Virus record (IMG/VR): IMGVR_UViG_3300034374_007216
Span: 1 to 64,000 of that record
Source of the DNA: a virus
DNA length: 64,000 nt
Direction: 5' to 3' (one strand)
In this document: in pieces, positions 3,252 through 32,717 of the stretch
Numbering within the stretch: the first letter of the stretch is position 1
Layout of the letters: each line of letters starts with the position of its first letter
Notes under the pieces: model-generated
What the model saw: only the letters and a program-made list of their open reading frames with translations
Told to the model about the DNA's origin: nothing
Databases searched by the model: none
Program-made: the position numbers and the translations under genes

Positions 3252-6200
3252 TTATGAATGAGAAATAATTGGCTGTTCATTGTCATAGTCTATAGAAATC
3301 TCTTCATTTTCGTCTGTACGAAGTTTAATGTGATTTAGTCGCTCGTTTTTCTTCTCTTTCTTTTCATCAGTAATTATTTTTTCACCATCGAAATCGGGCA
3401 AATTTTCTTCTTCCGTCAATTTGGTCGGTCCTCGTGGAGATTCTTGCGGAGTTCCTACATCAATACCCAAACCCTTTGGTCCTGTCCAAGTCATTTTTTC
3501 CTTACTAATAGTATCTAAAGTACGAAGAATGAGTTCAAGTGCTTTCTTTTTGGTTTCGGGTTTAAGCAATCTATTTTCATCATCTTCATCAATAAGACCC
3601 GCACTTTCTTCTTCCATTTGCTCTTCTGTTGGCTTTTTAGGCATGTCAAGTTCGGTTTTCTTAGTTACTATTCCTTTAATCATCAATGGTGCTACCGATG
3701 ACCAAAACGGCATAAGACTTTGAGATAGTACAACAGGATAGTCATTTTTCATAATACCACTAAGAGAACTTTTGGGAGAATGAATAAACCAATTATCCTC
3801 AAATTGCTCAAACTTGTATTTTACAATATCAACATCGTTTATGTGAATAAGTAATTCATCATCTATTATTTCTAAATCGTGTGGCATTATAATAGGTGTA
3901 AAAGATTTGGTTAGCAAATCAAGTGATTCAACGCTTGCCGCACCTTCTCCCTCACCTTCTCCTTCTATTTCTTTGAATTGTATATTATACACAGGTCGCT
4001 CTTTTCGATTCTTTTTCGTTACACCTGTAATAGATGCACGCACTATATCTCCGACTTTGAATGCTTTTTGTTGATTAAAGGCTGTGCCTACATCCATGTA
4101 ATAATGTCCTTTATGTTCTATTGCCCTGTTACCCAATCCTTCACCGTCGAGTATAGGACCAGCACCTAATTGATATGTGAATGGACCTTTACCCCTACGG
4201 TCAAGCACAATGAAATTGAAATCTTTTGTATCTCTATACAACAACCACTTAGGATGCCTTCTTTCACCTTTCATGTATGTTGATTTATTATCACGAAGGA
4301 GAATAACATCGTGTTCTTCTTTTAGTGAATTAACTGCTTCTTCAAGCCCCTCGTCATCTGTCATTTTAGTGTCGTGAGGACCGGGTACAATGACACTTTC
4401 ATGACTGTCAAATTGAGAACGGAGAATTTTCAGCCTTTCAAACAGTTGCATGTCGGATATATTATTATCGTCATAATTGATAATGTCAATAATATTTAAT
4501 TCTTCATCGCCAAGAATAGCATCAATAGTGTAGTTCTTTTTATTCAACTCTTCTATGGATTCCATAGTTTTCTTATTGACACCTTTTTTCTTCCCGTTTT
4601 CATCATACACAGTAATGCCTTCGTCATTCTTTACAATAACAATTCTCTTACCACTATACCACTTACTTACAACCCATGAACCACTAAAGCCACGCAAATG
4701 CTCAAGGTCATCTAAAGAAAATATTCTATGCATTGGTCGAATTGGTGGTGTCCAAGTGCTTTCATCTTTCTTTTCTAAAAGCACATCGGGGTTTAACAGT
4801 GAGGTAATAAGTTCACTCATTTCACTTTTACCTACTGCATATACATCTTCGCTCGGTGTTTCGTATGTATCTAAATCCATACTTTGATGAGCGGATTCAT
4901 TGTATTGAGGAGGCGGTGCGTTATCCCACACTTGTTTCACCATTTCATTTCCATGCACTATCTCCGATAATTCTTTTGGCACGCTATGATACAAGCCTGT
5001 TTCAATATTTGTTCCGGGTATCACTTGCCCGTCTTCTGTAATTTCAACACCAACACTCGGTGTTGCTTCGTAGCCCGAATGATATGCATGAGAATCAAAT
5101 GTGTCTGCAATTGAATTATTGACAGGTGACGGAGCACCAACGGGTAAGCCTTCTTGCATACCAGCAGAATAACTTTGTGAAATTTCTGGTGTAAATATAC
5201 CATCTTCACCTTCTAAATTAACAGTCGGATTAAAATGTACGATTGTATCTAAATGATTTCTTGTCATAAATGATGCCTTTTGCTTACCCTTAGCACCTAA
5301 AGTTTCAGCACCATGTATATCATTAGATATTGAGCCGATACCTGCGGCTTGTTGTTGATGAGCAAATGTACCATCAAATAGTCTGCTCATAGTGCGTGGA
5401 AAACTATGCAGTTCATGTCCTTTCCATTGGCTTTCACCATATTTAGATTGCAAACTTTGAATTGCTTGGTGGTAGCCTTTTTCATGAAGTATTCGATGAA
5501 ACATTTCATTATCATCTAAATCTTCAATTTCTTTACCCATTATTTCTTCATTGGGTAATAATTTAGAAAACGATGTGTTACCAACTTTATCAATTGCACC
5601 ACTTGTAAGCAATTGATTGATAGTTGAAGCCATAAGTGGTGTATTCAATTTGTTACTTTGTTCAATTAACTCACGAGCATGTTCTTTTGCTTGGGGGCTA
5701 CGCTCAATTCCAAGAGCATCAAGAACCTCATTCACCGACATATTACCATCAATCATTGTACCTTTGTCGGATAGATGTTGAGCAATTTGTGCATGTGCTT
5801 CTCCAACAGGTGATTTTTTACGCTCAATAATGTTCTGCTTTATTCCATAATTAGGTGCAGTAAGTCCATGAACTGAATGAGGTACAGTATTGATATATCG
5901 TTGTGCATCTCGGAAAAGTCGTGAATTATTATCTATGAACTTTTGTGGGTCGTTAGGGTCAAAAGCAGTGGGGTCTGCTTCAAGAAATTTAGGCATAATA
6001 ACATCTCTTGCCACTTGTGCAACAAGATTACGATGACCTTTGAAAATTGTATCTAAATGATTTTGCATAATTTCATAGTGTGTTGAACCACCACCCAACA
6101 CCGCTTTTGTTGCTTTGTTTTGCTCAACAGCAAGTTGTTGTTCTAATTCCTTTACTGATGAAAGAACTTGTTGGCGTTGCTCTCCTACTAATTCGGGGTT

Positions 6201-8984
6201 ATTCAAAACCCCATACAAATCTTCAAGTTCATCATTTATTGCTTCTTCTTTTTCCATTGCTGGTAAAGCACCACCAAATTGTAATGCGGCGGCGATAGCA
6301 TCGGTTACAGATGCTTTGTATTGTGATTTACTCTTTTGCTTCTCTTTTGATTTTTTATTTTCTTCATTAAGTATGTTCATCATAGATGGGAAAAAAGATT
6401 CTAATGACGACATATCTAAATTATCGAATTGACCATAACCCATATGGTCTTTCAAGTCTTCATAGTCGCCTCCACTCAAATAGGTCATAATTTGATTAGG
6501 ATTTGTGGTTTGAAGCATTTTTGCTGTTGATGTAATAATTTTAAGTGCATCTTTTGTTTCTGTATCTTGCACATAACGATTTTTCAACGCATTTGCTGTA
6601 GGTTTAGCAATGCCACCCCAACCCATAAGTTGTAAAAAATCATCCAATGTCAATCCAGCACTAAACTTTTCATCTCCACGAAGAAAATCTTTGTAGTTCA
6701 TTACTGATTTTTCTGCTGGTTGATTTGGATGGTCAAGACGACCAAGAAGTGTATTCATCATGTGTGCAATTTGGGCATTTTTGTGAATATGAGTGTCACT
6801 TGAACCCGGTCCATAACCGCTTGAACTTACGATATGTTCAGTTGGATTATGCGTAAATGGATGAGTCATAGGTGCAATGTAACTACCGAGAAAACTTTGT
6901 AAATCATTTTTTGTCATATTTCTAATAGCGTGTTCATACAATGGAATAAGTGATGATTTATGTTCAGTGTGATTGTTCTTTTCAGTAGCACCCTGCTTAA
7001 ATCCCGAAGCATAACTTCCATGTGGTTTTACTTTTGATGTGCCGAAAGGCGAAAGCATGTTTTGTATCGAAGATGGTATATTATTGTATGAAAATCCACC
7101 AATTGCCTTTTCCCCACTCATATATTTCACAGGGTCATATTCACCTATTTTTGTAGTGTGTTCGGGCATGAAGTGATAGGCTAACGATTTGTTATTATCA
7201 TTCATTTGTACGAAATTTTCACTTTCTGGATTTAAAGTGGTCAAATGTGAATCACCATCATTTCCATGTGTTGCATTCAAAATTTCATGCCATGTGGTCA
7301 CTGTTGAGCCTACACCACCTACTTTTTGAAATTCCTCCGCCCAAAACTTTCCGGGTCCATATGTATAACCATCTTTATGTTCTTTCCAATATGGTGCTTT
7401 TTCTTCGCTTGGATGTGGTCCATGTGGACTTGTTAAAAACGCTCTTGCGTTTCTTATGTCTTTCATTTTTGATTCTAACGAACCATTGTGATTTGCTTCT
7501 TGGATAAGTTCATCAATCCATTGTTTAGGTACTAATGGTTCATCCAATTTTCCATGTATAGGGTGATTTTCAAGCAAATCATTTGTATCGGGATTAAAAC
7601 CTGCAAGGTAATACAAGTCTTTGGCTGTTAATCTTACATGACTCAAATCCTTTCTTCCTTTTTTCTTGAAGTGGGAATTTGTTGCATCTTTTAAGTCATC
7701 CCAAGACAATTCTTTAAGTGGATTCTTATGAACATCTAAACGGGGTAAAAATCTAAGTCTTTTTTGCCCTTCTTTATCAGCACCATAGTTTTCATCTATT
7801 TTATCAATAATGTAATCTGCAATTGATTTTTCACCAAAAAATGTTTGTGGTGTATGTGCAAGTTCTCCAATTTGTTTCTGTAAAAAGCGAGCCTCACCAC
7901 CTTGTTCAAAATCAATGTCATTATCTTCTTGACGATAATGTGCGTTTCGGCCTGTAAGATGGGAAGGTCTTACCCACCAATTCATTTCGGGTGTCATACG
8001 CATAAGAGCGTTGTAAGTTATTCTTGCTGATGGTATTTTTTCTCCATTAGGTAATGTAATGACTTCATGTTTATCAAGACCCTTTTCGGGGTCGTTAATG
8101 TGATTCATTATAGCCGTTCTTTCTTCGGGGCTAAACCATTCAAGACCGTACATGTAACCGTTATGACCGAGATTTTTAGGGTGTCGAACACCATTTTCAT
8201 CTTCAACATGTTCATTTGAATCCCAATCTCTTGCTCTATCTTCAAAATGTAAATGACGCATTTCTCTATTTGCTTCATCGTCAGTTAGACCTTGACTCAA
8301 TAAATCGTCTTTAATTGCTGAATTTTCTCTTAACCATCGTTGGTAATCACGATGGTAAAAATCAATTTGATGATTGTTCATTGTTTGTTTAGTGATTGTA
8401 CTTCCGAGTAATTTTCTTTTTATTTTACCATAAGATGTTTCTGCATTGTAACCGTTAATCAACGGGTTATTCGCTTTACTTTCATGAGCAATGAATTTTT
8501 TCTCAAAGTCTTTTTCATCTTGAGCGTGTCCATTAAAAATATGTTTTCGTATCTTTTCAATATATTGTGAATTACCCGTAACAGCATTCTTTCTAAGTAA
8601 TGGATGATTTACTTCATGAAATGGAAAATGATGGCTACGGTACGGAGCATTTGGAGAAGATGGTTGATAATACGGCCACACCGCATGAGCATTTTCTGGA
8701 TTTAAGGGCGTTTGTAACCCATCACTCCACACATGGTCTGTGGGTTCATTATCAGCATGATGCCTTCCAAAAAGATAACCTTCTTGCCTTTTTTGTTCTT
8801 CATCTTCTTTAGCAATAATCATTTCAGCAGTATTCAAAAGTGATTTTTGAAATGCATCGAGTTTTTTGTCATCAAGTGCTTCGTAAGCAAGTATGTATTC
8901 CGCCGCAGATGTACGAAGGTCATAACCATCATGAAGTGATTTTAACAACTCATTAGTCGAGATGTCAAAACGCTTTGACTCCAT
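3252..8984 (-). CDS. Very large virion-type protein with an embedded degenerate ATP-dependent DNA-ligase-like domain
   Basis: 1910 residues from the ATG at 8984, chosen because GGCGGTGA precedes it by 5 bases; an ATG at 9002 overlapping the upstream stop is the alternative. Residues 1-1390 are rich in His, Asn and charged residues and match nothing I recognise. Residues about 1410-1640 follow the order of ATP-dependent DNA ligases: SKWYSGKR near residue 1441 (motif I region), YDENG, ILGDEEL (motif III region), NIIDIINYDD with FERLKILRS, HDVILLR (motif IV region) and YMKGERRHPKW (motif V region), then an OB-like stretch. The expected K-x-D-G-x-R is altered and the later lysines are Arg or missing, so the domain is probably inactive or binds nucleotide differently. 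It sits between the protease and portal genes, so a virion role is inferred. Confidence 0.8.
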   Translation of the reverse strand: MESKRFDISTNELLKSLHDGYDLRTSAAEYILAYEALDDKKLDAFQKSLLNTAEMIIAKEDEEQKRQEGYLFGRHHADNEPTDHVWSDGLQTPLNPENAHAVWPYYQPSSPNAPYRSHHFPFHEVNHPLLRKNAVTGNSQYIEKIRKHIFNGHAQDEKDFEKKFIAHESKANNPLINGYNAETSYGKIKRKLLGSTITKQTMNNHQIDFYHRDYQRWLRENSAIKDDLLSQGLTDDEANREMRHLHFEDRARDWDSNEHVEDENGVRHPKNLGHNGYMYGLEWFSPEERTAIMNHINDPEKGLDKHEVITLPNGEKIPSARITYNALMRMTPEMNWWVRPSHLTGRNAHYRQEDNDIDFEQGGEARFLQKQIGELAHTPQTFFGEKSIADYIIDKIDENYGADKEGQKRLRFLPRLDVHKNPLKELSWDDLKDATNSHFKKKGRKDLSHVRLTAKDLYYLAGFNPDTNDLLENHPIHGKLDEPLVPKQWIDELIQEANHNGSLESKMKDIRNARAFLTSPHGPHPSEEKAPYWKEHKDGYTYGPGKFWAEEFQKVGGVGSTVTTWHEILNATHGNDGDSHLTTLNPESENFVQMNDNNKSLAYHFMPEHTTKIGEYDPVKYMSGEKAIGGFSYNNIPSSIQNMLSPFGTSKVKPHGSYASGFKQGATEKNNHTEHKSSLIPLYEHAIRNMTKNDLQSFLGSYIAPMTHPFTHNPTEHIVSSSGYGPGSSDTHIHKNAQIAHMMNTLLGRLDHPNQPAEKSVMNYKDFLRGDEKFSAGLTLDDFLQLMGWGGIAKPTANALKNRYVQDTETKDALKIITSTAKMLQTTNPNQIMTYLSGGDYEDLKDHMGYGQFDNLDMSSLESFFPSMMNILNEENKKSKEKQKSKSQYKASVTDAIAAALQFGGALPAMEKEEAINDELEDLYGVLNNPELVGEQRQQVLSSVKELEQQLAVEQNKATKAVLGGGSTHYEIMQNHLDTIFKGHRNLVAQVARDVIMPKFLEADPTAFDPNDPQKFIDNNSRLFRDAQRYINTVPHSVHGLTAPNYGIKQNIIERKKSPVGEAHAQIAQHLSDKGTMIDGNMSVNEVLDALGIERSPQAKEHARELIEQSNKLNTPLMASTINQLLTSGAIDKVGNTSFSKLLPNEEIMGKEIEDLDDNEMFHRILHEKGYHQAIQSLQSKYGESQWKGHELHSFPRTMSRLFDGTFAHQQQAAGIGSISNDIHGAETLGAKGKQKASFMTRNHLDTIVHFNPTVNLEGEDGIFTPEISQSYSAGMQEGLPVGAPSPVNNSIADTFDSHAYHSGYEATPSVGVEITEDGQVIPGTNIETGLYHSVPKELSEIVHGNEMVKQVWDNAPPPQYNESAHQSMDLDTYETPSEDVYAVGKSEMSELITSLLNPDVLLEKKDESTWTPPIRPMHRIFSLDDLEHLRGFSGSWVVSKWYSGKRIVIVKNDEGITVYDENGKKKGVNKKTMESIEELNKKNYTIDAILGDEELNIIDIINYDDNNISDMQLFERLKILRSQFDSHESVIVPGPHDTKMTDDEGLEEAVNSLKEEHDVILLRDNKSTYMKGERRHPKWLLYRDTKDFNFIVLDRRGKGPFTYQLGAGPILDGEGLGNRAIEHKGHYYMDVGTAFNQQKAFKVGDIVRASITGVTKKNRKERPVYNIQFKEIEGEGEGEGAASVESLDLLTKSFTPIIMPHDLEIIDDELLIHINDVDIVKYKFEQFEDNWFIHSPKSSLSGIMKNDYPVVLSQSLMPFWSSVAPLMIKGIVTKKTELDMPKKPTEEQMEEESAGLIDEDDENRLLKPETKKKALELILRTLDTISKEKMTWTGPKGLGIDVGTPQESPRGPTKLTEEENLPDFDGEKIITDEKKEKKNERLNHIKLRTDENEEISIDYDNEQPIISHS

Positions 8985-8998
8985 GATTTCACCGCCTT

Positions 8999-9571
8999 TC
9001 ATAGCGGTTTAAATTTAGGGCAAGCGTGCAAATCCATTCCTTCGTGCAACAAACAACCTGTGCGGTCTGTACCGCCACAAAGACCGCATATTCCCATACC
9101 TGCTTCTCGCATGGTTGCTCTTGGATTTGCTTTTTGCACAGATGATTTACCACCTTGTGAATCTTCACGCTCAATACCGCCGCCTTCATGTGGATTCATT
9201 CTTGAGCCAAGATTTTCCATATCGGTTGCTTCTTTACCTTTCTTTTTCTTTGGAGCATCTTCTGCTTCAATGGTTCGACCATTTGTAGTAAAATATCCCG
9301 TCTTTGTTTGACCACCCGATTCTGCTACAAAGTGAGGATTGATGTCAGTAATCTTTTCACTCTTGTAACCGGGTTCGGCTTTTTCCATTTTGCCACCGCA
9401 ACCCATCTTCATGCAACCCATCTTGTTCATTTTAGTGCCGCACTTAGGACAGTTTTTACACTCACATGGTTCTTTTCCACAGTCGCACTTTGCTTTTTCT
9501 AATGCGTCAATTCGCAAAGATACCTCACGAGCCTTTTTCATAATTTCCGATTCTTCAAATCTTGGCTTCAT
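8999..9571 (-). CDS. Cys-rich zinc-binding protein of the head operon
   Basis: 190 residues, ATG start overlapping the stop of the upstream gene (ATGA). Residues 33-60 contain a dense cluster (CDCG, CECKNCPKCGTK, then GCMKMGCGG). The C-terminus has a second cluster, GICGLCGGTDRTGCLLHEG then HACPKF. Together they suggest at least two zinc ribbons around a polar linker. No known family is recognised. It is translationally coupled to both neighbours in the head block, so a minor virion or assembly role is the best guess. Confidence 0.8.
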   Translation of the reverse strand: MKPRFEESEIMKKAREVSLRIDALEKAKCDCGKEPCECKNCPKCGTKMNKMGCMKMGCGGKMEKAEPGYKSEKITDINPHFVAESGGQTKTGYFTTNGRTIEAEDAPKKKKGKEATDMENLGSRMNPHEGGGIEREDSQGGKSSVQKANPRATMREAGMGICGLCGGTDRTGCLLHEGMDLHACPKFKPL

Positions 9572-26193: not shown

Positions 26194-28524
26194 TTACAAC
26201 TCCCGAAGAGTTCCCTTGTCTTTGAAATGTCTTGCCCTGTTTTCATGTTCTCCTTCAAGAGTTAATTTGCCACCTTCGGTGTGGCTGATGTCTTTATGGT
26301 CGTGGCTACCGTATATGCCACGCTTTCTTCGTTCTTGGTTAAGTTGCTCTCTATACTTTATTCTTTCGGGGCTGGACTCATACTTCTTGTCGTACTCCAA
26401 CTTGTGCCGCTTGGCTTCGGGGCTTACACGCTCTTTGAGCAGTTGAAAGGCGATTTCCATAGGTTCGCTGGCGAGTTTCTTCCATTGAGAGGGGTGTACT
26501 GCGTGCGCTCTTACGGGGTCAAGGAGGCCATCGGGTTTAGTATCACCAAAATCAATACCACCGGGCATTTCCGCTTGCGAGTCTTGCCATGCGTCAAACA
26601 TTATTTCCATTACTGCTCGGTCTAATTCCTCTTTTGTAGTAGGAAAATGATTTTGAAAAGCCATATTCATGAAGTAATTTCCTTGATTATTCAAAAAGGA
26701 TAACTTGTCATCATCACTCATGTTTTCCACATAATCCCACAAAGAATTGGTAGTAGCAATAAGTTGTTCATCTGCTTCATCATTCCATATTTGTTCATGA
26801 GGATGAATGTACTCTTCGTCTTGATAATCAATGTCTTCCTTGAGCAGTTGGAAGGCGATGTTCATTGGTTCGCTGGCGAGTTTTTCATCTTCATTTTCTG
26901 CTTCTTCATTTTCTGGCTCTTGCTTTTTAGGCAACCGCACAGTTAATGGTTTTCTGTTTGTATATACATTAACAGGGTTTGCAATTCCCATTCTTTTTCT
27001 TTCTTCATTTGCCGCCTGTAATTCATCTAATCTATTTTGCCATAACATTTCGCCTCTTTTCTTATCATCTGCTCTTTTTTCCCAATAGGTTAAGGGTACG
27101 AAATCTGGCGATGACTCATTAGTTGTTCTAAAATTTAAATGATTTCTGCCGGTATCTCTCATAGTATTTTTTAAATTGTTAATAAATCTTACATCCATAT
27201 CATCCGGTTTATCCAAACCTAATGGATAATTGGGTAAATTTTCCATTGGTGCTATATTTTCATTCAATCTAAATCGGGGGCTGAATAACCGGTAGCGGAG
27301 TAATTGACTATAATCATTTTTGAGCAACCGCAAAGCGATGTCCATTGGTTCGCCTGTGTATTTCATTTGGTCGGCTTCACTAAAACCAGCATTATCACAC
27401 ATTTCATCATATAATTCATATTCCATTATTTCTTCACAACTTGCGTTTTCAACTTCTTCTATCAAAGATTCCATATATTTTAACGCTTCGTGCTTATGCG
27501 GAGTTTCATATTCGGGGTCATTTTCCTCACCAAAAGTCCAATTAGGCCCATCTTCATCTTCATCTTCAATTATCTGATTTAGGTAATTTTGGTAATCTGA
27601 AAGTATTTCTGTTCTAACAGTTTCAGCACAAGAGCAAGGGTCATTATTTTCTATTGTTTGCATATCTATCATGGGTGTATCTTCTTGCATTGGTGCTTGC
27701 TCTTCAACACTTTGAGTCATTGGAGGTTGCAATTCAAGGCTTTGTTTGAGCAGTTGGAAGGCGATTTCCATTGGTTCACCTTTTGGAAATGTAAAATCCG
27801 TTAATGGTTCATTTAAAAGTTGTTGATTTTTACTCCATTGTTGAAATGGGTCGTGAAAATCCTCAATAGATTCCCATGATTGAGGTGTTCGCTCAAGAGT
27901 AACGGGTGAAACATCTTCACTAAGAACAGGTGGTATTCCATATGCTATCAATTGTTTTGCGGCTTCAATTTCCTTTTCTTTTAATTCATCAATAGATAAA
28001 TTATTCGTTGGCATTAAAGCAGTTGCCGCCATTCTTAATGCATGAAAATCTATAGGTCTGTTTGTAATTCTTTGAATATCACTTTCTGGTACATCGCCAT
28101 AAATTATACCTTCGGGTTGCAAGACTTCTGCATATCTTTGTGGTGTATTTTTACCTTCAAACCCATAAAGATGCAACGGTCTATTTCCATGCTTGTAACT
28201 TGAAGGCACATCTGCTTTTGAATGCGATTGAAAATCGGGATTGAATGAAAATAATTCTGCGGGATATGTAAAACGGCCACCTAAAGGTACTCCGTCTAAT
28301 TCCAAAGGTAATTTATCTATATTTTTGTGTCGAGCGTATCTTAGGTTATTTCTAAAAAATACATTTTCTCCACTCATTAACGACCTTGCTTCTGCTGGTG
28401 TTTTGTATTCTGCTGGTTGCATTCTAAGTGAATGTATGCTTCCACCTAACGGGTTCACATCTTCAAGATACTGCCGATACTCTTGGGGCGAAATGTACGC
28501 TTTGCGTATCGCCACCTTCCGCAT
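26194..28524 (-). CDS. Multi-module protein with four internal EPMxIAxxLLK tags
   Basis: 776 residues. The N-terminus MRKVAIRKAYISPQEY resembles that of the divergent gene. Four helix tags are encoded at about 26430-26475 (SEPMEIAFQLLKER), 26833-26880 (SEPMNIAFQLLKED), 27317-27358 (GEPMDIALRLLKND) and 27747-27787 (GEPMEIAFQLLKQS). They separate an N-terminal globular module of about 240 residues and several shorter acidic modules. The DNA of the tags is also conserved (GAGCAGTTGGAAGGCGAT on the plus strand), suggesting recent duplication or recombination. No enzyme motif is certain. It could be a processed polyprotein or a virion cargo protein. Confidence 0.78.
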   Translation of the reverse strand: MRKVAIRKAYISPQEYRQYLEDVNPLGGSIHSLRMQPAEYKTPAEARSLMSGENVFFRNNLRYARHKNIDKLPLELDGVPLGGRFTYPAELFSFNPDFQSHSKADVPSSYKHGNRPLHLYGFEGKNTPQRYAEVLQPEGIIYGDVPESDIQRITNRPIDFHALRMAATALMPTNNLSIDELKEKEIEAAKQLIAYGIPPVLSEDVSPVTLERTPQSWESIEDFHDPFQQWSKNQQLLNEPLTDFTFPKGEPMEIAFQLLKQSLELQPPMTQSVEEQAPMQEDTPMIDMQTIENNDPCSCAETVRTEILSDYQNYLNQIIEDEDEDGPNWTFGEENDPEYETPHKHEALKYMESLIEEVENASCEEIMEYELYDEMCDNAGFSEADQMKYTGEPMDIALRLLKNDYSQLLRYRLFSPRFRLNENIAPMENLPNYPLGLDKPDDMDVRFINNLKNTMRDTGRNHLNFRTTNESSPDFVPLTYWEKRADDKKRGEMLWQNRLDELQAANEERKRMGIANPVNVYTNRKPLTVRLPKKQEPENEEAENEDEKLASEPMNIAFQLLKEDIDYQDEEYIHPHEQIWNDEADEQLIATTNSLWDYVENMSDDDKLSFLNNQGNYFMNMAFQNHFPTTKEELDRAVMEIMFDAWQDSQAEMPGGIDFGDTKPDGLLDPVRAHAVHPSQWKKLASEPMEIAFQLLKERVSPEAKRHKLEYDKKYESSPERIKYREQLNQERRKRGIYGSHDHKDISHTEGGKLTLEGEHENRARHFKDKGTLREL

Positions 28525-28558: not shown

Positions 28559-28575
28559 CGCCTTATGCGATGTGC

Positions 28576-30453
28576 ATGAGTCGTGTTGCTGTCAAGAAAG
28601 GCAACGACGACATCGAGAAAGAATTAGCCGGAACTGTTGGTGGAGCGGCGGCTGGTAGGTTGGCTGGTGCGGCTATTGGTAGTATTGTACCGGGAGTAGG
28701 CACTGTTATTGGTGGTATGTTAGGTGGTGCTTTAGGAGCAAAAGTTGGAGATAAAATTACTGATGCGGCGGGTGTTGGAGGTCAAGCCCCAAGTAGTACA
28801 CAAAACTCGATGGCATCTTCATCAATGGCTACATCGGGTTCGGACAACACTCAAGCAGGTCAAGAAGACAACGCCGAACAATTATCCGCCCAACAATCAG
28901 CCGCTCAAAGAGCAGGTGGGGCGGCGATGGCAATAGGCCAACATTTTGCACAGCAACAACAAATGCAACAACAGAACAATCAACAAATGGCTGAAAAGGC
29001 TAAGCAAAATTCACAAATTCAAACAGGCGAGCCGATGGATATGTCATGGCGTTTGTTAAAAGATATTTATTTTAATCAATTATACAATAAACCAGAATAT
29101 GCTCAAGCAAGACAACAAATCATTGATGCGGCTATTGAAAACATGCAAAATGTTCAATATTCACCAGATACTCATGCAAGGATTCGTGCCGGATTTCCGG
29201 GGTATGAACCATCTCATACAATAAATGGTCGAAATTTTTATACAGATGAACTTGGTCAAGATATAGATGCTCGATACCCCGAAGATTACATGTATGACCA
29301 AGAACATAGTAACCAAAAAAGATTTCCCGGCATGGTTAATATTCCACCATATCATTTAATGGATGCTATGAAAAATTTTGTTGATTGGGAAAATATACCT
29401 TTAGTCACAGAAGGTGAAAAAGTAGGTCAAAAAAAAGATGTAGGAATTGAAAATCTATTTGGTATTGGTACACCATATAAACGACAAGAACCTTATCGTG
29501 GTGTTTTACAAGAAAGATTAGGAGGATTACCTTCTGTTAAAACATTTCTTGGTAGGGATATGAGATATAAACCAGAAAGTACAGAAAATATTCACCATAG
29601 TTATTTTATGCATCCTAATTTAGAGCGTGGGCAAAATTTGCTTGAAGCAAATATTGAAAGACAAAAAGAACAAAAACGATTAGCAGAAGAAGCAGAAGCA
29701 GAACAAAAACGATTAGCAGAAGAACAACGAATAAAAGATGAAAATAGAAAAAGACAACAAGCGATAAATAGAGAAACAAGGAAAAAGAAAAAATTAGCCG
29801 ATGAAGCAGGTTTAACTGTTGAAGAATGGGAAAAAGCAGAAGAAGAAAGAATAAAAAGAGAGAAAAAAGAAGAAAAAGCAAGAATAAAAGCAGAAAAAGA
29901 ACAAAAATTACAAGAAACAATTGCAGAAAACCAACGAATAATTCAAGCAAAAATTCAAGCAAAAATAGAACGAAACAAAAGAGAAGAAAATTTCCCAAAC
30001 GATGTTAATGAAGTTCCCGAAGATGTTTTAAATACAGAAGAAGGGCGTAAAATAGCATCTAAATGGGAAAGAATTGGAAATAGAGTTTATTATAATAAAA
30101 GTCCTGTTGAAGACATGACTGATATAAGAAATGCGTGGAACATAGATTGGAAAGAAAAAGTTCTTGCTGTTGCTGTTGGGCGTAAATTAGGTTATATTAA
30201 AAAATCCGAACCAATGGATTTGGCTTGGCAACTTCTTAAAAATGAACTACAACTTCCACTTCGCTTAGGAGAAAAAATTCGTGAAGATGTCATGGCACTT
30301 GACAGGCAACACAAAATAATGGACAATCCCGATGGCACGCTAATTCAAAACATTCATCCCGACATGGAAAATGTCGTTAAGTTGCTCACAAATATGGAAG
30401 CCGATAAACAACCTGTACCTACACGGCCTTCAAGACCTGCATACCTGTTTTGA
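28576..30453 (+). CDS. Glycine-zipper, long-helix protein with two tags, probable internal or ejection protein
   Basis: 625 residues from ATG 28576 (ATG 28570 also possible). The start MSRVAVKKG parallels the divergent gene. Residues 18-70 are a glycine-zipper-like hydrophobic stretch (GTVGGAAAGRLAGAAIGSIV, then GGMLGGALGAKVGD). A Gln-rich stretch follows, then tag one GEPMDMSWRLLKD (29026-29066). After a globular part there is a very long Lys/Glu/Arg/Gln helix (about residues 350-480), and tag two SEPMDLAWQLLKN lies near the end (30206-30247). Membrane-inserting zipper plus long helix resembles DNA-ejection proteins; this is inference. The 3' end overlaps the HMG-CoA lyase gene by 35 bases. 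Confidence 0.8.
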   Translation: MSRVAVKKGNDDIEKELAGTVGGAAAGRLAGAAIGSIVPGVGTVIGGMLGGALGAKVGDKITDAAGVGGQAPSSTQNSMASSSMATSGSDNTQAGQEDNAEQLSAQQSAAQRAGGAAMAIGQHFAQQQQMQQQNNQQMAEKAKQNSQIQTGEPMDMSWRLLKDIYFNQLYNKPEYAQARQQIIDAAIENMQNVQYSPDTHARIRAGFPGYEPSHTINGRNFYTDELGQDIDARYPEDYMYDQEHSNQKRFPGMVNIPPYHLMDAMKNFVDWENIPLVTEGEKVGQKKDVGIENLFGIGTPYKRQEPYRGVLQERLGGLPSVKTFLGRDMRYKPESTENIHHSYFMHPNLERGQNLLEANIERQKEQKRLAEEAEAEQKRLAEEQRIKDENRKRQQAINRETRKKKKLADEAGLTVEEWEKAEEERIKREKKEEKARIKAEKEQKLQETIAENQRIIQAKIQAKIERNKREENFPNDVNEVPEDVLNTEEGRKIASKWERIGNRVYYNKSPVEDMTDIRNAWNIDWKEKVLAVAVGRKLGYIKKSEPMDLAWQLLKNELQLPLRLGEKIREDVMALDRQHKIMDNPDGTLIQNIHPDMENVVKLLTNMEADKQPVPTRPSRPAYLF

Positions 30454-31255
30454 TTTCATCAACAATTGCTGATGAAATTTTTAGTTTCTCTTCATTTACG
30501 CCTGTTTCAAAACCCCACACATGAAGGTACTTCACAAGTTTTTCAGTTGAAATGTTTGCACCACTTTTTTCGGCAAAAGGACAACCACCAAGCCCTCCTA
30601 TGCTACTATCGAATTCAGTAATGCCGTAAAACAAACCGCTTTGAATTATTTTTATAGCCTTTTCTTCATCTCCTTTATGGTGCAAGTGCAACGCAGGTTT
30701 TATTTTCTCAGCAATTGAAATGCTTGCCATGTCTTTCACCTGCCAAATTTCACCGATGCCTACGGTGTCTGCAAACACAACCGTCGAGCCAAATAATTTT
30801 GCATCACGAATACAATTTTTCAATACTAAGTTTGTAACTTTACCGGTGTACGGAGAGCCAAACGCCATGCTAAGATACACTCGCACATTTTCTTTTGGCA
30901 CACCATTGAGCATCGTTTGATACATTTGCACAATTTCACTGCGAGTCTTTTTCATGTTTCGCATGTTAAATTCTTCACACGGTGAAAACACGATGTTGAA
31001 TTTTTCCGCCCCTGCCGCTTTTGCTCGGTCAAAGCCACGCTGATTCATGACAAGTACGCCGCCATGCTGAAACACCTGCTCCGCATCAGCCATCTGCGGA
31101 ACAAGTTTAGGGTGAGCGAAACTTACTTCTTCGACGCTCTCCAACCCCGCATCGTAAAGTGAATGGATAAGACGCACTTTAGTTTCAGTGTCAATAATTT
31201 GTTTGATATTTTGTAATCCATCTCTCGGACCTACTTCGTACACTGAAACACGCAT
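30419..31255 (-). CDS. mvaB: HMG-CoA lyase-like enzyme (HMGL TIM barrel)
   Basis: 278 residues, slightly shorter than the usual 295-300. It follows HMG-CoA lyase along its length: VGPRDGLQN (Arg11, Asp12), VSFAHPKLVPQMADAE, VRVYLSMAFGSPYTGKV, FADTVGIG, the metal-binding pair His190/His192 in ALHLHH, the catalytic-loop signature GGLGGCPFA (Cys225) and SGANISTE (Asn234). The enzyme splits 3-hydroxy-3-methylglutaryl-CoA to acetoacetate and acetyl-CoA in leucine breakdown and links to archaeal isoprenoid precursors. The catalytic residues look intact, so it is probably an active auxiliary metabolic gene. It is last in a leftward trio with two tag proteins. Other HMGL-family lyases are possible. 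Confidence 0.88.
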   Translation of the reverse strand: MRVSVYEVGPRDGLQNIKQIIDTETKVRLIHSLYDAGLESVEEVSFAHPKLVPQMADAEQVFQHGGVLVMNQRGFDRAKAAGAEKFNIVFSPCEEFNMRNMKKTRSEIVQMYQTMLNGVPKENVRVYLSMAFGSPYTGKVTNLVLKNCIRDAKLFGSTVVFADTVGIGEIWQVKDMASISIAEKIKPALHLHHKGDEEKAIKIIQSGLFYGITEFDSSIGGLGGCPFAEKSGANISTEKLVKYLHVWGFETGVNEEKLKISSAIVDEIKTGMQVLKAV

Positions 31256-31285
31256 GGAATCATGAATGCTGTCGAAGTTTTAAAT

Positions 31286-31966
31286 TTATCTTCTTGAGTG
31301 GTATTGACTACCCATTCTTTGCATCATTCTGTTTCTTTGGGAGTTTGGACCGCCGCCTCGTCTTGGTCGTACTTGGACTTTTGGTGTTGTTTGAATTGGC
31401 TTGAAAACATCTCTTCGTGGTGCAGGTGGTTTGGGCGTTGGTCGTGCGGGGTTTGCTTGAGGGAATCTTGGTTGTTCTATTCTTGCAGGGCCTTCGGGGT
31501 CATATGTTGGTACATCTTCGACCATCCCCATTCCGCCCATTGGCGACCAACTTCTTTCTTGATTTACTTCACTCATAGGAGTTTCATCATCCCTTGCATA
31601 CTCTTGCACAGTGCCATCCCATAGCACTTTATCATTATAATGTGCTGGATGTAAAGGGTCATAGGGTAAAGTTTGGAACATTTCCCAATCTTCAACGGGT
31701 TGAATACCTCGACGCTGATTTATTTTTTGTGCCGCAATCAAACGGTTTGCGTCGCTTTGATTACCTGTATTACCCAAATAACTTAACGAAGGAGCGGAGT
31801 GAATTTGAGCACCTGTAGGAGTCATGCCCTGTTCTTCGTATGCTTGTCGGTAATCGGCCATACGCTCCGGTGTCATACGCAACCCACCCGCTCTTGCGGC
31901 GTGTTGTAGGTCTTCACGACTAAGGGCTTTGAGAAGTTCCCATGCTTGATTAAAAGCACTCGCCAT
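31286..31966 (-). CDS. Pro/Arg-rich protein with N-terminal tag
   Basis: 226 residues from ATG 31966, chosen because it puts the helix tag (MASAFNQAWELLKALS) at the N-terminus as in its neighbours. The middle is polar and probably globular (MTPERMADYRQAYEEQGM, NRLIAAQKINQRRGIQP). The last 70 residues are rich in Pro and Arg (RPTPKPPAPRRD, RPRRGGGPNSQRNRMMQRMG) and may bind nucleic acid. No family is recognised. Upstream spacing is short and lacks a clear ribosome-binding site. Confidence 0.75.
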   Translation of the reverse strand: MASAFNQAWELLKALSREDLQHAARAGGLRMTPERMADYRQAYEEQGMTPTGAQIHSAPSLSYLGNTGNQSDANRLIAAQKINQRRGIQPVEDWEMFQTLPYDPLHPAHYNDKVLWDGTVQEYARDDETPMSEVNQERSWSPMGGMGMVEDVPTYDPEGPARIEQPRFPQANPARPTPKPPAPRRDVFKPIQTTPKVQVRPRRGGGPNSQRNRMMQRMGSQYHSRR

Positions 31967-31998
31967 GCAAGTCGTACGAACATTTAGCATATAAAAAT

Positions 31999-32679
31999 TT
32001 AGAAATCTGTAAGTGATGTTTGCTTTGACGGGTCAAAGGGCTTAGATTTGTTACGAGTTCGGTCCATAAACGGATAAGCACCAATGTCATATTCTTTCAA
32101 TGGACTGTTTTCTGCGTAAGGAATTTCGGGTTCGTATAAAAATGAACTTGCTTCATGAATAGAATTATCATCGGGCCTTAAATTAGAAAAACTTAATCTA
32201 ACACCGGGTGGTAAATTTTGCATAAATTTTTCATGAAAGGAATGTGATTTTTCATTTCTGTTGTCGGATTCAATGTTATAACCTCTTGCTAAAATAGCAC
32301 GAATTAATTTGTCGTAATATCCTTGCCTTCTATAATTTGAATTTGTAAATCCTTGAAAATTTCGTAATGTGTTTTCACCTAAATCAACATCGGAAAGACC
32401 TGTAATAAAATGTTTATATTCTGGTGTTGCTAAATAAAAACCTGTTTGTCCATAATCGTTAAGATTTCTAACCAAAAGATTTGGGCGTGGCAAATAAATT
32501 TCCGGCTCTCTAAACGCCCATTCACCTTCCGAATCAGCCCAATCAATTACTTCTCCGGTGTTTGGGTCGAACCGTTTTTGACTAAACAATCCGGCGATTT
32601 GAGCCATAGTATTTTTATTGCTTAGTTGAGAAAATGGCGACTTAAGCAAGTTCCACGCTTGCTCAAACGGGGTCGCCAT
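31999..32679 (-). CDS. GNAT-like protein with N-terminal tag
   Basis: 226 residues. It begins MATPFEQAWNLLKSPFS, the helix tag. The C-terminal half has NSNYRRQGYYDKLIRAIL, the GNAT acetyl-CoA loop region, then NIESDNRNEKSHSFHEKFM, like the late strand and helix of phage GNAT-like proteins. It is the first gene of the leftward trio ending in the HMG-CoA lyase. A TATA-like run lies about 25 bases upstream. Acetyltransferase activity is plausible but not certain because the loop glycines are incomplete. Confidence 0.72.
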   Translation of the reverse strand: MATPFEQAWNLLKSPFSQLSNKNTMAQIAGLFSQKRFDPNTGEVIDWADSEGEWAFREPEIYLPRPNLLVRNLNDYGQTGFYLATPEYKHFITGLSDVDLGENTLRNFQGFTNSNYRRQGYYDKLIRAILARGYNIESDNRNEKSHSFHEKFMQNLPPGVRLSFSNLRPDDNSIHEASSFLYEPEIPYAENSPLKEYDIGAYPFMDRTRNKSKPFDPSKQTSLTDF

Positions 32680-32698: not shown

Positions 32699-32717
32699 TT
32701 TATTTTAAATTTTTTTT
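32699..32717 (-). promoter_or_regulatory. TATA-like promoter of the tag/HMG-CoA lyase operon
   Basis: The minus strand reads AAATTTAAAATAAAAAA ending about 20 bases before the ATG at 32679. This suits an archaeal TATA box driving a leaderless or nearly leaderless transcript. It differs from the 22-base promoter used by the rightward operons. Confidence 0.45.

What the first reader, a model, noticed from the sequence alone, without database searches (positions are those of the whole stretch)
30419..31255. Intact HMG-CoA lyase-like gene carried as an auxiliary metabolic gene
All key residues expected for HMG-CoA lyase are present (Arg11/Asp12, His190/His192, Cys225 in GGLGGCPFA, Asn234). The enzyme yields acetyl-CoA and acetoacetate from leucine breakdown and could draw HMG-CoA from archaeal isoprenoid lipid synthesis. 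It is in an operon with two tag proteins, one GNAT-like and so a possible acetyl-CoA user.
Basis: partly seen in the sequence, partly recalled or inferred. Interest (0 to 1): 0.75.

Follow-up and report, generated by a model that had tools for sequence, protein, structure and literature searches.

The report
Archaeal-virus HMG-CoA lyase-like gene
A marine archaeal virus of the magrovirus kind carries an intact gene resembling the enzyme that splits HMG-CoA, the precursor of archaeal membrane lipids; such genes were already known in these viruses, but they turn out to form an old virus-specific family that keeps every catalytic residue and often has its own promoter and a tiny membrane protein beside it.

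Summary
The gene is real: 278 aa, 30419-31255 (-), TIM-barrel model closest to HMG-CoA lyases (HMGL), not isopropylmalate or homocitrate synthases. All eight residues named for human HMGL (R41, D42, E72, Y167, H233, H235, C266, N275) have counterparts, kept in essentially all 92 viral homologues; which residue aligns with H235 is not fully settled. The 82.8-kb parent record has a thermosome, and related HMGL-bearing viruses have PolB, so it is a magrovirus (predicted Poseidoniales host). HMGL in magroviruses is already published (ICTV Aoguangviridae 2023; Xu 2023), so the headline is not new.

New here: viral HMGLs form one clade (100/100), at most 39% identical to sampled bacterial homologues, under purifying selection (dN/dS about 0.08), at several genomic sites. 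In about half of relatives HMGL overlaps a conserved ~51-aa one-helix membrane microprotein behind a shared promoter-like element; the window lacks it. The 'operon with two tag proteins' is not supported: each gene has its own TATA-like box. Of the pathway partners tested, the viruses encode none, so substrate must come from the host. Best reading: it cleaves host HMG-CoA, blocking lipid synthesis and returning acetyl-CoA. Activity, host genomes and archaeal HMGLs were not testable.

The parts
30419..31255 (-). HMG-CoA lyase-like gene, 278 aa
31220..31225 (-). codons of R11-D12 (human R41 catalytic, D42 metal ligand)
   Evidence: R11 and D12 invariant in 81/81 viral homologues; R-D-G motif in 92/92
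30680..30688 (-). codons of H190-L191-H192, predicted metal-binding HxH (human H233/H235), followed by a remodelled loop HKGDE instead of the cellular HDTxG
   Evidence: H190 and H192 81/81; spacing shifted -2/+2 relative to cellular; residue correspondence not settled by coordinates
30581..30583 (-). codon of C225 (human C266, catalytic)
   Evidence: GLGGCP in 92/92 viral homologues
31278..31284 (-). TATA-like box TTTAAAA, 29 nt before the HMGL ATG; no Shine-Dalgarno site
31286..31966 (-). neighbour: tag protein (MASAFNQAWELLK...), with its own TATA-like sequence upstream; ORF listed from 31990
31999..32679 (-). neighbour: tag protein with a weakly GNAT-like core (RRQGYYDKLI...SDNRNEKSHSFHEKF), own TATA-like box at 32703-32709
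28570..30453 (+). convergent tag-repeat protein whose 3' end overlaps the 3' end of HMGL by 35 bp

Best explanation
The gene encodes a metal-dependent HMG-CoA lyase of a virus-specific clade. Shown: the sequence family, the predicted fold, conserved catalytic residues, purifying selection, the magrovirus context, a TATA-like box of its own, and no virus-encoded partner among the three families tested. Inferred: made during infection of a Poseidoniales archaeon, it cleaves host HMG-CoA into acetyl-CoA and acetoacetate. Because HMG-CoA is the branch point of the mevalonate pathway in archaea (established knowledge), this would stop new isoprenoid lipid synthesis, which a tailed virus does not need, and return acetyl-CoA to the cell. 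In the roughly half of relatives that encode the coupled one-helix microprotein, the enzyme may be held at the membrane; the window virus lacks that partner.
For: HMGL and not synthase; AF2 model (pLDDT 82.5) matches HMGL structures first (2cw6, E 1.3e-21, TM 0.85-0.86; best isopropylmalate synthase 4.5e-12). Eight residues of human HMGL (PMC6941031) have counterparts, kept in essentially all 92 viral sequences (two regex misses are variant flanking residues). dN/dS median 0.08 over 97 pairs. Viral sequences form one clade apart from 38 bacterial HMGL and HMGL-like rows, 100/100. Thermosome in G000 at 73513-74940 and in 24 of 31 HMGL-bearing records of 50 kb or more; PolB in 25 of 25 large records tested. 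Lone enzyme: no CoA-transferase, HMG-CoA reductase or carboxyltransferase family in 23 records. HMGL present in 10 of 13 records of 75 kb or more found by TerL similarity.
Against: No activity, expression or substrate data. Score is below the curated PRK05692 cut-off. The DRE-TIM motif HxHDTxG..A.AN is rewritten in the viral clade, so substrate or rate could differ. Absent from some relatives (G004, G009, G011), so not essential. That Poseidoniales make HMG-CoA by the mevalonate route is general knowledge of archaea, not tested here.
Confidence: 0.58

Rival explanations
1. It boosts host leucine catabolism: HMG-CoA arises from host leucine degradation and the viral lyase completes the last step to feed acetyl-CoA and acetoacetate into energy metabolism (the annotation given in Xu 2023).
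For: This is the pathway of bacterial HMGL operons such as the Acinetobacter stretch; same reaction; so annotated for magroviruses in PMC10160649.
Against: No carboxyltransferase or CoA-transferase family in 23 large virus records. Whether Poseidoniales carry the leucine pathway was not testable here.
Confidence: 0.15
2. A neofunctionalised DRE-TIM aldolase: same retro-aldol chemistry, different acyl-CoA or carrier-bound substrate, explaining the rewritten HxH loop.
For: The HDTxG/AN motif near-universal in the cellular sequences is replaced by HLHHKGDE in the viral clade; PRK05692 cut-off not reached; at most 39% identity to the bacterial homologues found.
Against: R, E, Y and C catalytic residues all kept, including Y167, for which a motif search found only 5 of 24 bacterial relatives.
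Confidence: 0.2
3. A non-enzymatic or virion-associated role (for example scaffold or regulator).
For: Neighbours are often structural or tag proteins.
Against: Catalytic residues invariant over deep divergence; HMGL carries no tag sequence.
Confidence: 0.04

Closest known systems
Magroviral HMG-CoA lyase (Aoguangviridae, YSH_150918; ICTV profile PMC10768690; Xu et al. 2023 PMC10160649)
   Same: Same enzyme annotation in tailed viruses linked to Poseidoniales; the relatives found here carry PolB and chaperonin genes as described for that order.
   Different: Published sequences were not in the collections here, so direct identity was not measured. In the passages and sections read, the published accounts do not describe the clade, the microprotein, the promoter element or active-site conservation.
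Cellular HMG-CoA lyase (human 2cw6; bacterial 1ydo, 1ydn, 2ftp; NCBIfam PRK05692)
   Same: Fold, four catalytic residues, metal ligands, GGLGGCP loop; human about 35% identity in the structural alignment.
   Different: Viral clade has a shifted HxH and remodelled following loop, a shorter loop around residue 62, and ends about 20 residues earlier; below the curated cut-off.
Klosneuvirus HMGL-like protein (A0A1V0SKU2)
   Same: Only other strong viral structural match (E 1.4e-18, TM 0.87).
   Different: 26% identity; giant virus of eukaryotes; not sampled in the tree.

Membership tests
HMG-CoA lyase (EC 4.1.3.4) | HMGL-like TIM barrel (PF00682, HMGL structures as nearest) | tested here: met
HMG-CoA lyase (EC 4.1.3.4) | Catalytic R41, E72, Y167, C266 | tested here: met
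   R11, E42, Y127, C225
HMG-CoA lyase (EC 4.1.3.4) | Mg2+ ligands D42, H233, H235, N275 | tested here: inconclusive
   D12 and N234 clear; HxH present as H190/H192 but offset by 2; no coordinates to superpose
HMG-CoA lyase (EC 4.1.3.4) | Curated score cut-off of NCBIfam PRK05692 (246 bits); a naming threshold, so the protein is filed as HMG-CoA lyase-like | tested here: not met
   212.6 bits
HMG-CoA lyase (EC 4.1.3.4) | Cleaves HMG-CoA | not testable with these tools
   needs assay
Isopropylmalate / homocitrate synthases | Best match to LeuA/LysS/NifV models | tested here: not met
   LEU1_arch 35 bits against a cut-off of 485; weaker structural match
Magrovirales auxiliary metabolic gene | Encoded by a magrovirus (PolB, thermosome, tailed-virus head genes) | tested here: met
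   thermosome in own record; TerL, portal, prohead protease and SU10-type MCP in the window; PolB in related records, not tested in the own record
Magrovirales auxiliary metabolic gene | Derived from a host gene | not testable with these tools
   no archaeal genome could be reached; bacterial HMGLs form a separate group

The most novel reading that the evidence does not exclude
Magroviruses carry an ancient, virus-specific HMG-CoA lyase module with a shared promoter element (TTTAATTTCTACAC type) and, in about half of the genomes found, a translationally coupled one-helix membrane microprotein that anchors or regulates the enzyme, so that the virus shuts off archaeal lipid synthesis at the membrane.
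Probability: 0.25. Interest if true: 0.7.

Novelty: new member of a known kind. Interest (0 to 1): 0.42.

Why it matters
Magroviruses are reported to be widespread in surface oceans, and they are known only from metagenomes. An enzyme that destroys the precursor of archaeal membrane lipids, retained across deep viral divergence and at several genomic sites, would be a direct handle on how these viruses reprogramme archaeal cells. The microprotein and promoter give a specific, cheaply testable prediction.

Tried and rejected
(1) Synthase identity (LeuA, homocitrate): rejected by profile scores and structure search. (2) 'Acinetobacter phage MD-2021a' as a phage HMGL: its HMGL lies in what reads as a bacterial leucine-degradation operon (acyl-CoA dehydrogenase, carboxylases, enoyl-CoA hydratase, HMGL), most likely a chromosome contaminant. 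(3) Tag protein operon: not supported because of individual TATA-like boxes and variable neighbours. (4) Microprotein in the window or in G000 from 60.0 to 79.9 kb: no significant match (best E 0.76). (5) Host relatives: one genome-contig scan was allowed and returned bacteria only; the genome search refuses relatives of a virus record, so archaeal HMGLs are missing from the trees. (6) Named magrovirus records ON649702, PP497040 and OR863078 are not held; two key papers (PMC11706807, PMC5434244) are not held either. (7) Poseidoniales metabolism papers with HMG-CoA: none found beyond the ICTV profile. (8) A first bacterial sample was biased by the search pattern; repeated with HMGL-model matches from 20 genomes, same result.

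Full report
An uninterrupted 278-codon ORF lies at 30419-31255 on the minus strand. It matches the HMGL-like domain and, among curated models, HMG-CoA lyase far above any synthase (212.6 against 35 bits), though below NCBI's naming cut-off of 246. Solved relatives found by sequence are all HMG-CoA lyases. A predicted structure (pLDDT 82.5) matches human and bacterial HMG-CoA lyases as its first 14 hits (E 1.3e-21 to 1.5e-18); isopropylmalate synthase follows at 4.5e-12.

Active site. A review of human HMGL lists R41, E72, Y167 and C266 as catalytic and D42, H233, H235 and N275 as metal ligands (PMC6941031). The window protein has R11, D12, E42, Y127, C225 and N234 at the aligned positions and an HxH at 190/192. 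In 81 viral homologues these are invariant; adding 11 divergent homologues the motifs are found in 91-92 of 92, the two misses in the script being variant flanking residues. The HxH is offset: from the conserved D of DT(V)G to the first histidine viral proteins have mostly 27 residues and cellular ones mostly 29, and the following loop is correspondingly longer. A gap-free alignment would put K194 at H235; but K194 varies while H190 and H192 do not, and one divergent lineage has other spacings on both sides with HLH kept. I take HLH to be the metal motif with a remodelled loop; superposition is needed.

Family and virus. Viral scans returned 157 relatives, of which 80 were kept (46-66% identity). 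Bacterial relatives reach at most 39%. In a tree with both strong HMGL-model matches and HMGL-like bacterial proteins, all viral rows are on one side of a 100/100 branch. Archaeal and eukaryotic sequences are missing, so the source is open. The parent record (82,798 bases) has a thermosome at 73513-74940; 24 of 31 HMGL-bearing records of 50 kb or more have one and 25 of 25 large records tested have PolB. Together with the tailed-virus head genes in the window, this makes it a magrovirus; the Poseidoniales host is predicted from the literature, not shown here. HMGL is present in 10 of 13 TerL relatives of 75 kb or more, absent in three. It sits in several places: among tag proteins, beside tail-fibre-like or other structural genes, and beside TerL. 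Purifying selection is strong (median dN/dS 0.08, 97 pairs; pairs with the truncated L065 show spurious dN values in that output and should be ignored).

Prior knowledge. HMGL is already reported in magroviruses: as modulation of host metabolism in the ICTV Aoguangviridae profile (PMC10768690) and as a leucine-degradation AMG in Xu et al. 2023 (PMC10160649), which also says AMGs are sporadically distributed. The identification is therefore not new; the breadth and structure of the family are better resolved here.

Expression. In the window, HMGL, the preceding tag protein and the GNAT-like protein each have a TATA-like box within 36-17 nt of the start, and no Shine-Dalgarno sequence; only 7 of 52 window genes have such a box (background 4%). 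This points to separate, nearly leaderless transcripts rather than an operon. The right arm uses a different element, GATTAGTATTTAAACTAACTAAG, in 8 copies with none expected by chance.

Microprotein. In 40 of 81 viral loci (41 with L001) the HMGL start overlaps or abuts the stop of a 43-60 codon ORF: one hydrophobic helix, then an acidic stretch and a C-terminal motif of the type [FL]..xC..G[LM]R[RK]; profile hits nearby raise this to 46 loci. Pooled pN/pS is about 0.27. No family is known for it in Pfam or PHROGs. 34 of 40 have a TATA-like box at the right distance and none a Shine-Dalgarno. A shared element of the TTTAATTTCTACAC type lies just upstream of the HMGL unit in 36 loci and almost nowhere else in 1.1 Mb (the pattern was derived from these loci, so only its absence elsewhere is informative). 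The window lacks the microprotein.

Mechanism. In the 23 large virus records tested there is no HMG-CoA reductase, CoA-transferase or carboxyltransferase family, so HMG-CoA must come from the host. In archaea HMG-CoA is the entry to isoprenoid lipid synthesis (established knowledge). Cleaving it would halt lipid synthesis and give back acetyl-CoA and acetoacetate. This is my preferred explanation; the reaction and its consequence are inferred, not shown.

Noticed in passing
33174-57499 (+), 8 sites: Right-arm promoter-like element GATTAGTATTTAAACTAACTAAG, 8 copies, all on the plus strand, none expected by chance.
   Followed up: partly
L001-L082 upstream of HMGL, e.g. the microORFs of L005, L007, L009, L046: Conserved ~51-aa single-helix membrane microprotein translationally coupled to HMGL in about half of the viral loci; no known family.
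   Followed up: yes
26194-28524 (-), 28570-30453 (+), 31286-32679 (-): A short [F/M]xxAW/F.LLK tag recurs at the N-terminus or internally in many unrelated magroviral proteins (clusters 1, 17, 18, 20, 22, 33, 35); HMGL does not carry it.
   Followed up: no
3252-9002 (-): 1916-aa protein with a weak ATP-dependent DNA ligase domain (E 0.00077) inside the virion-gene arm.
   Followed up: no
L244-L252: A divergent HMGL lineage lies directly beside TerL in other magroviruses, showing that the gene occupies different sites.
   Followed up: partly
L011 (CAKLQH020000001): Record labelled Acinetobacter phage appears to be bacterial chromosome with a leucine-degradation operon.
   Followed up: no
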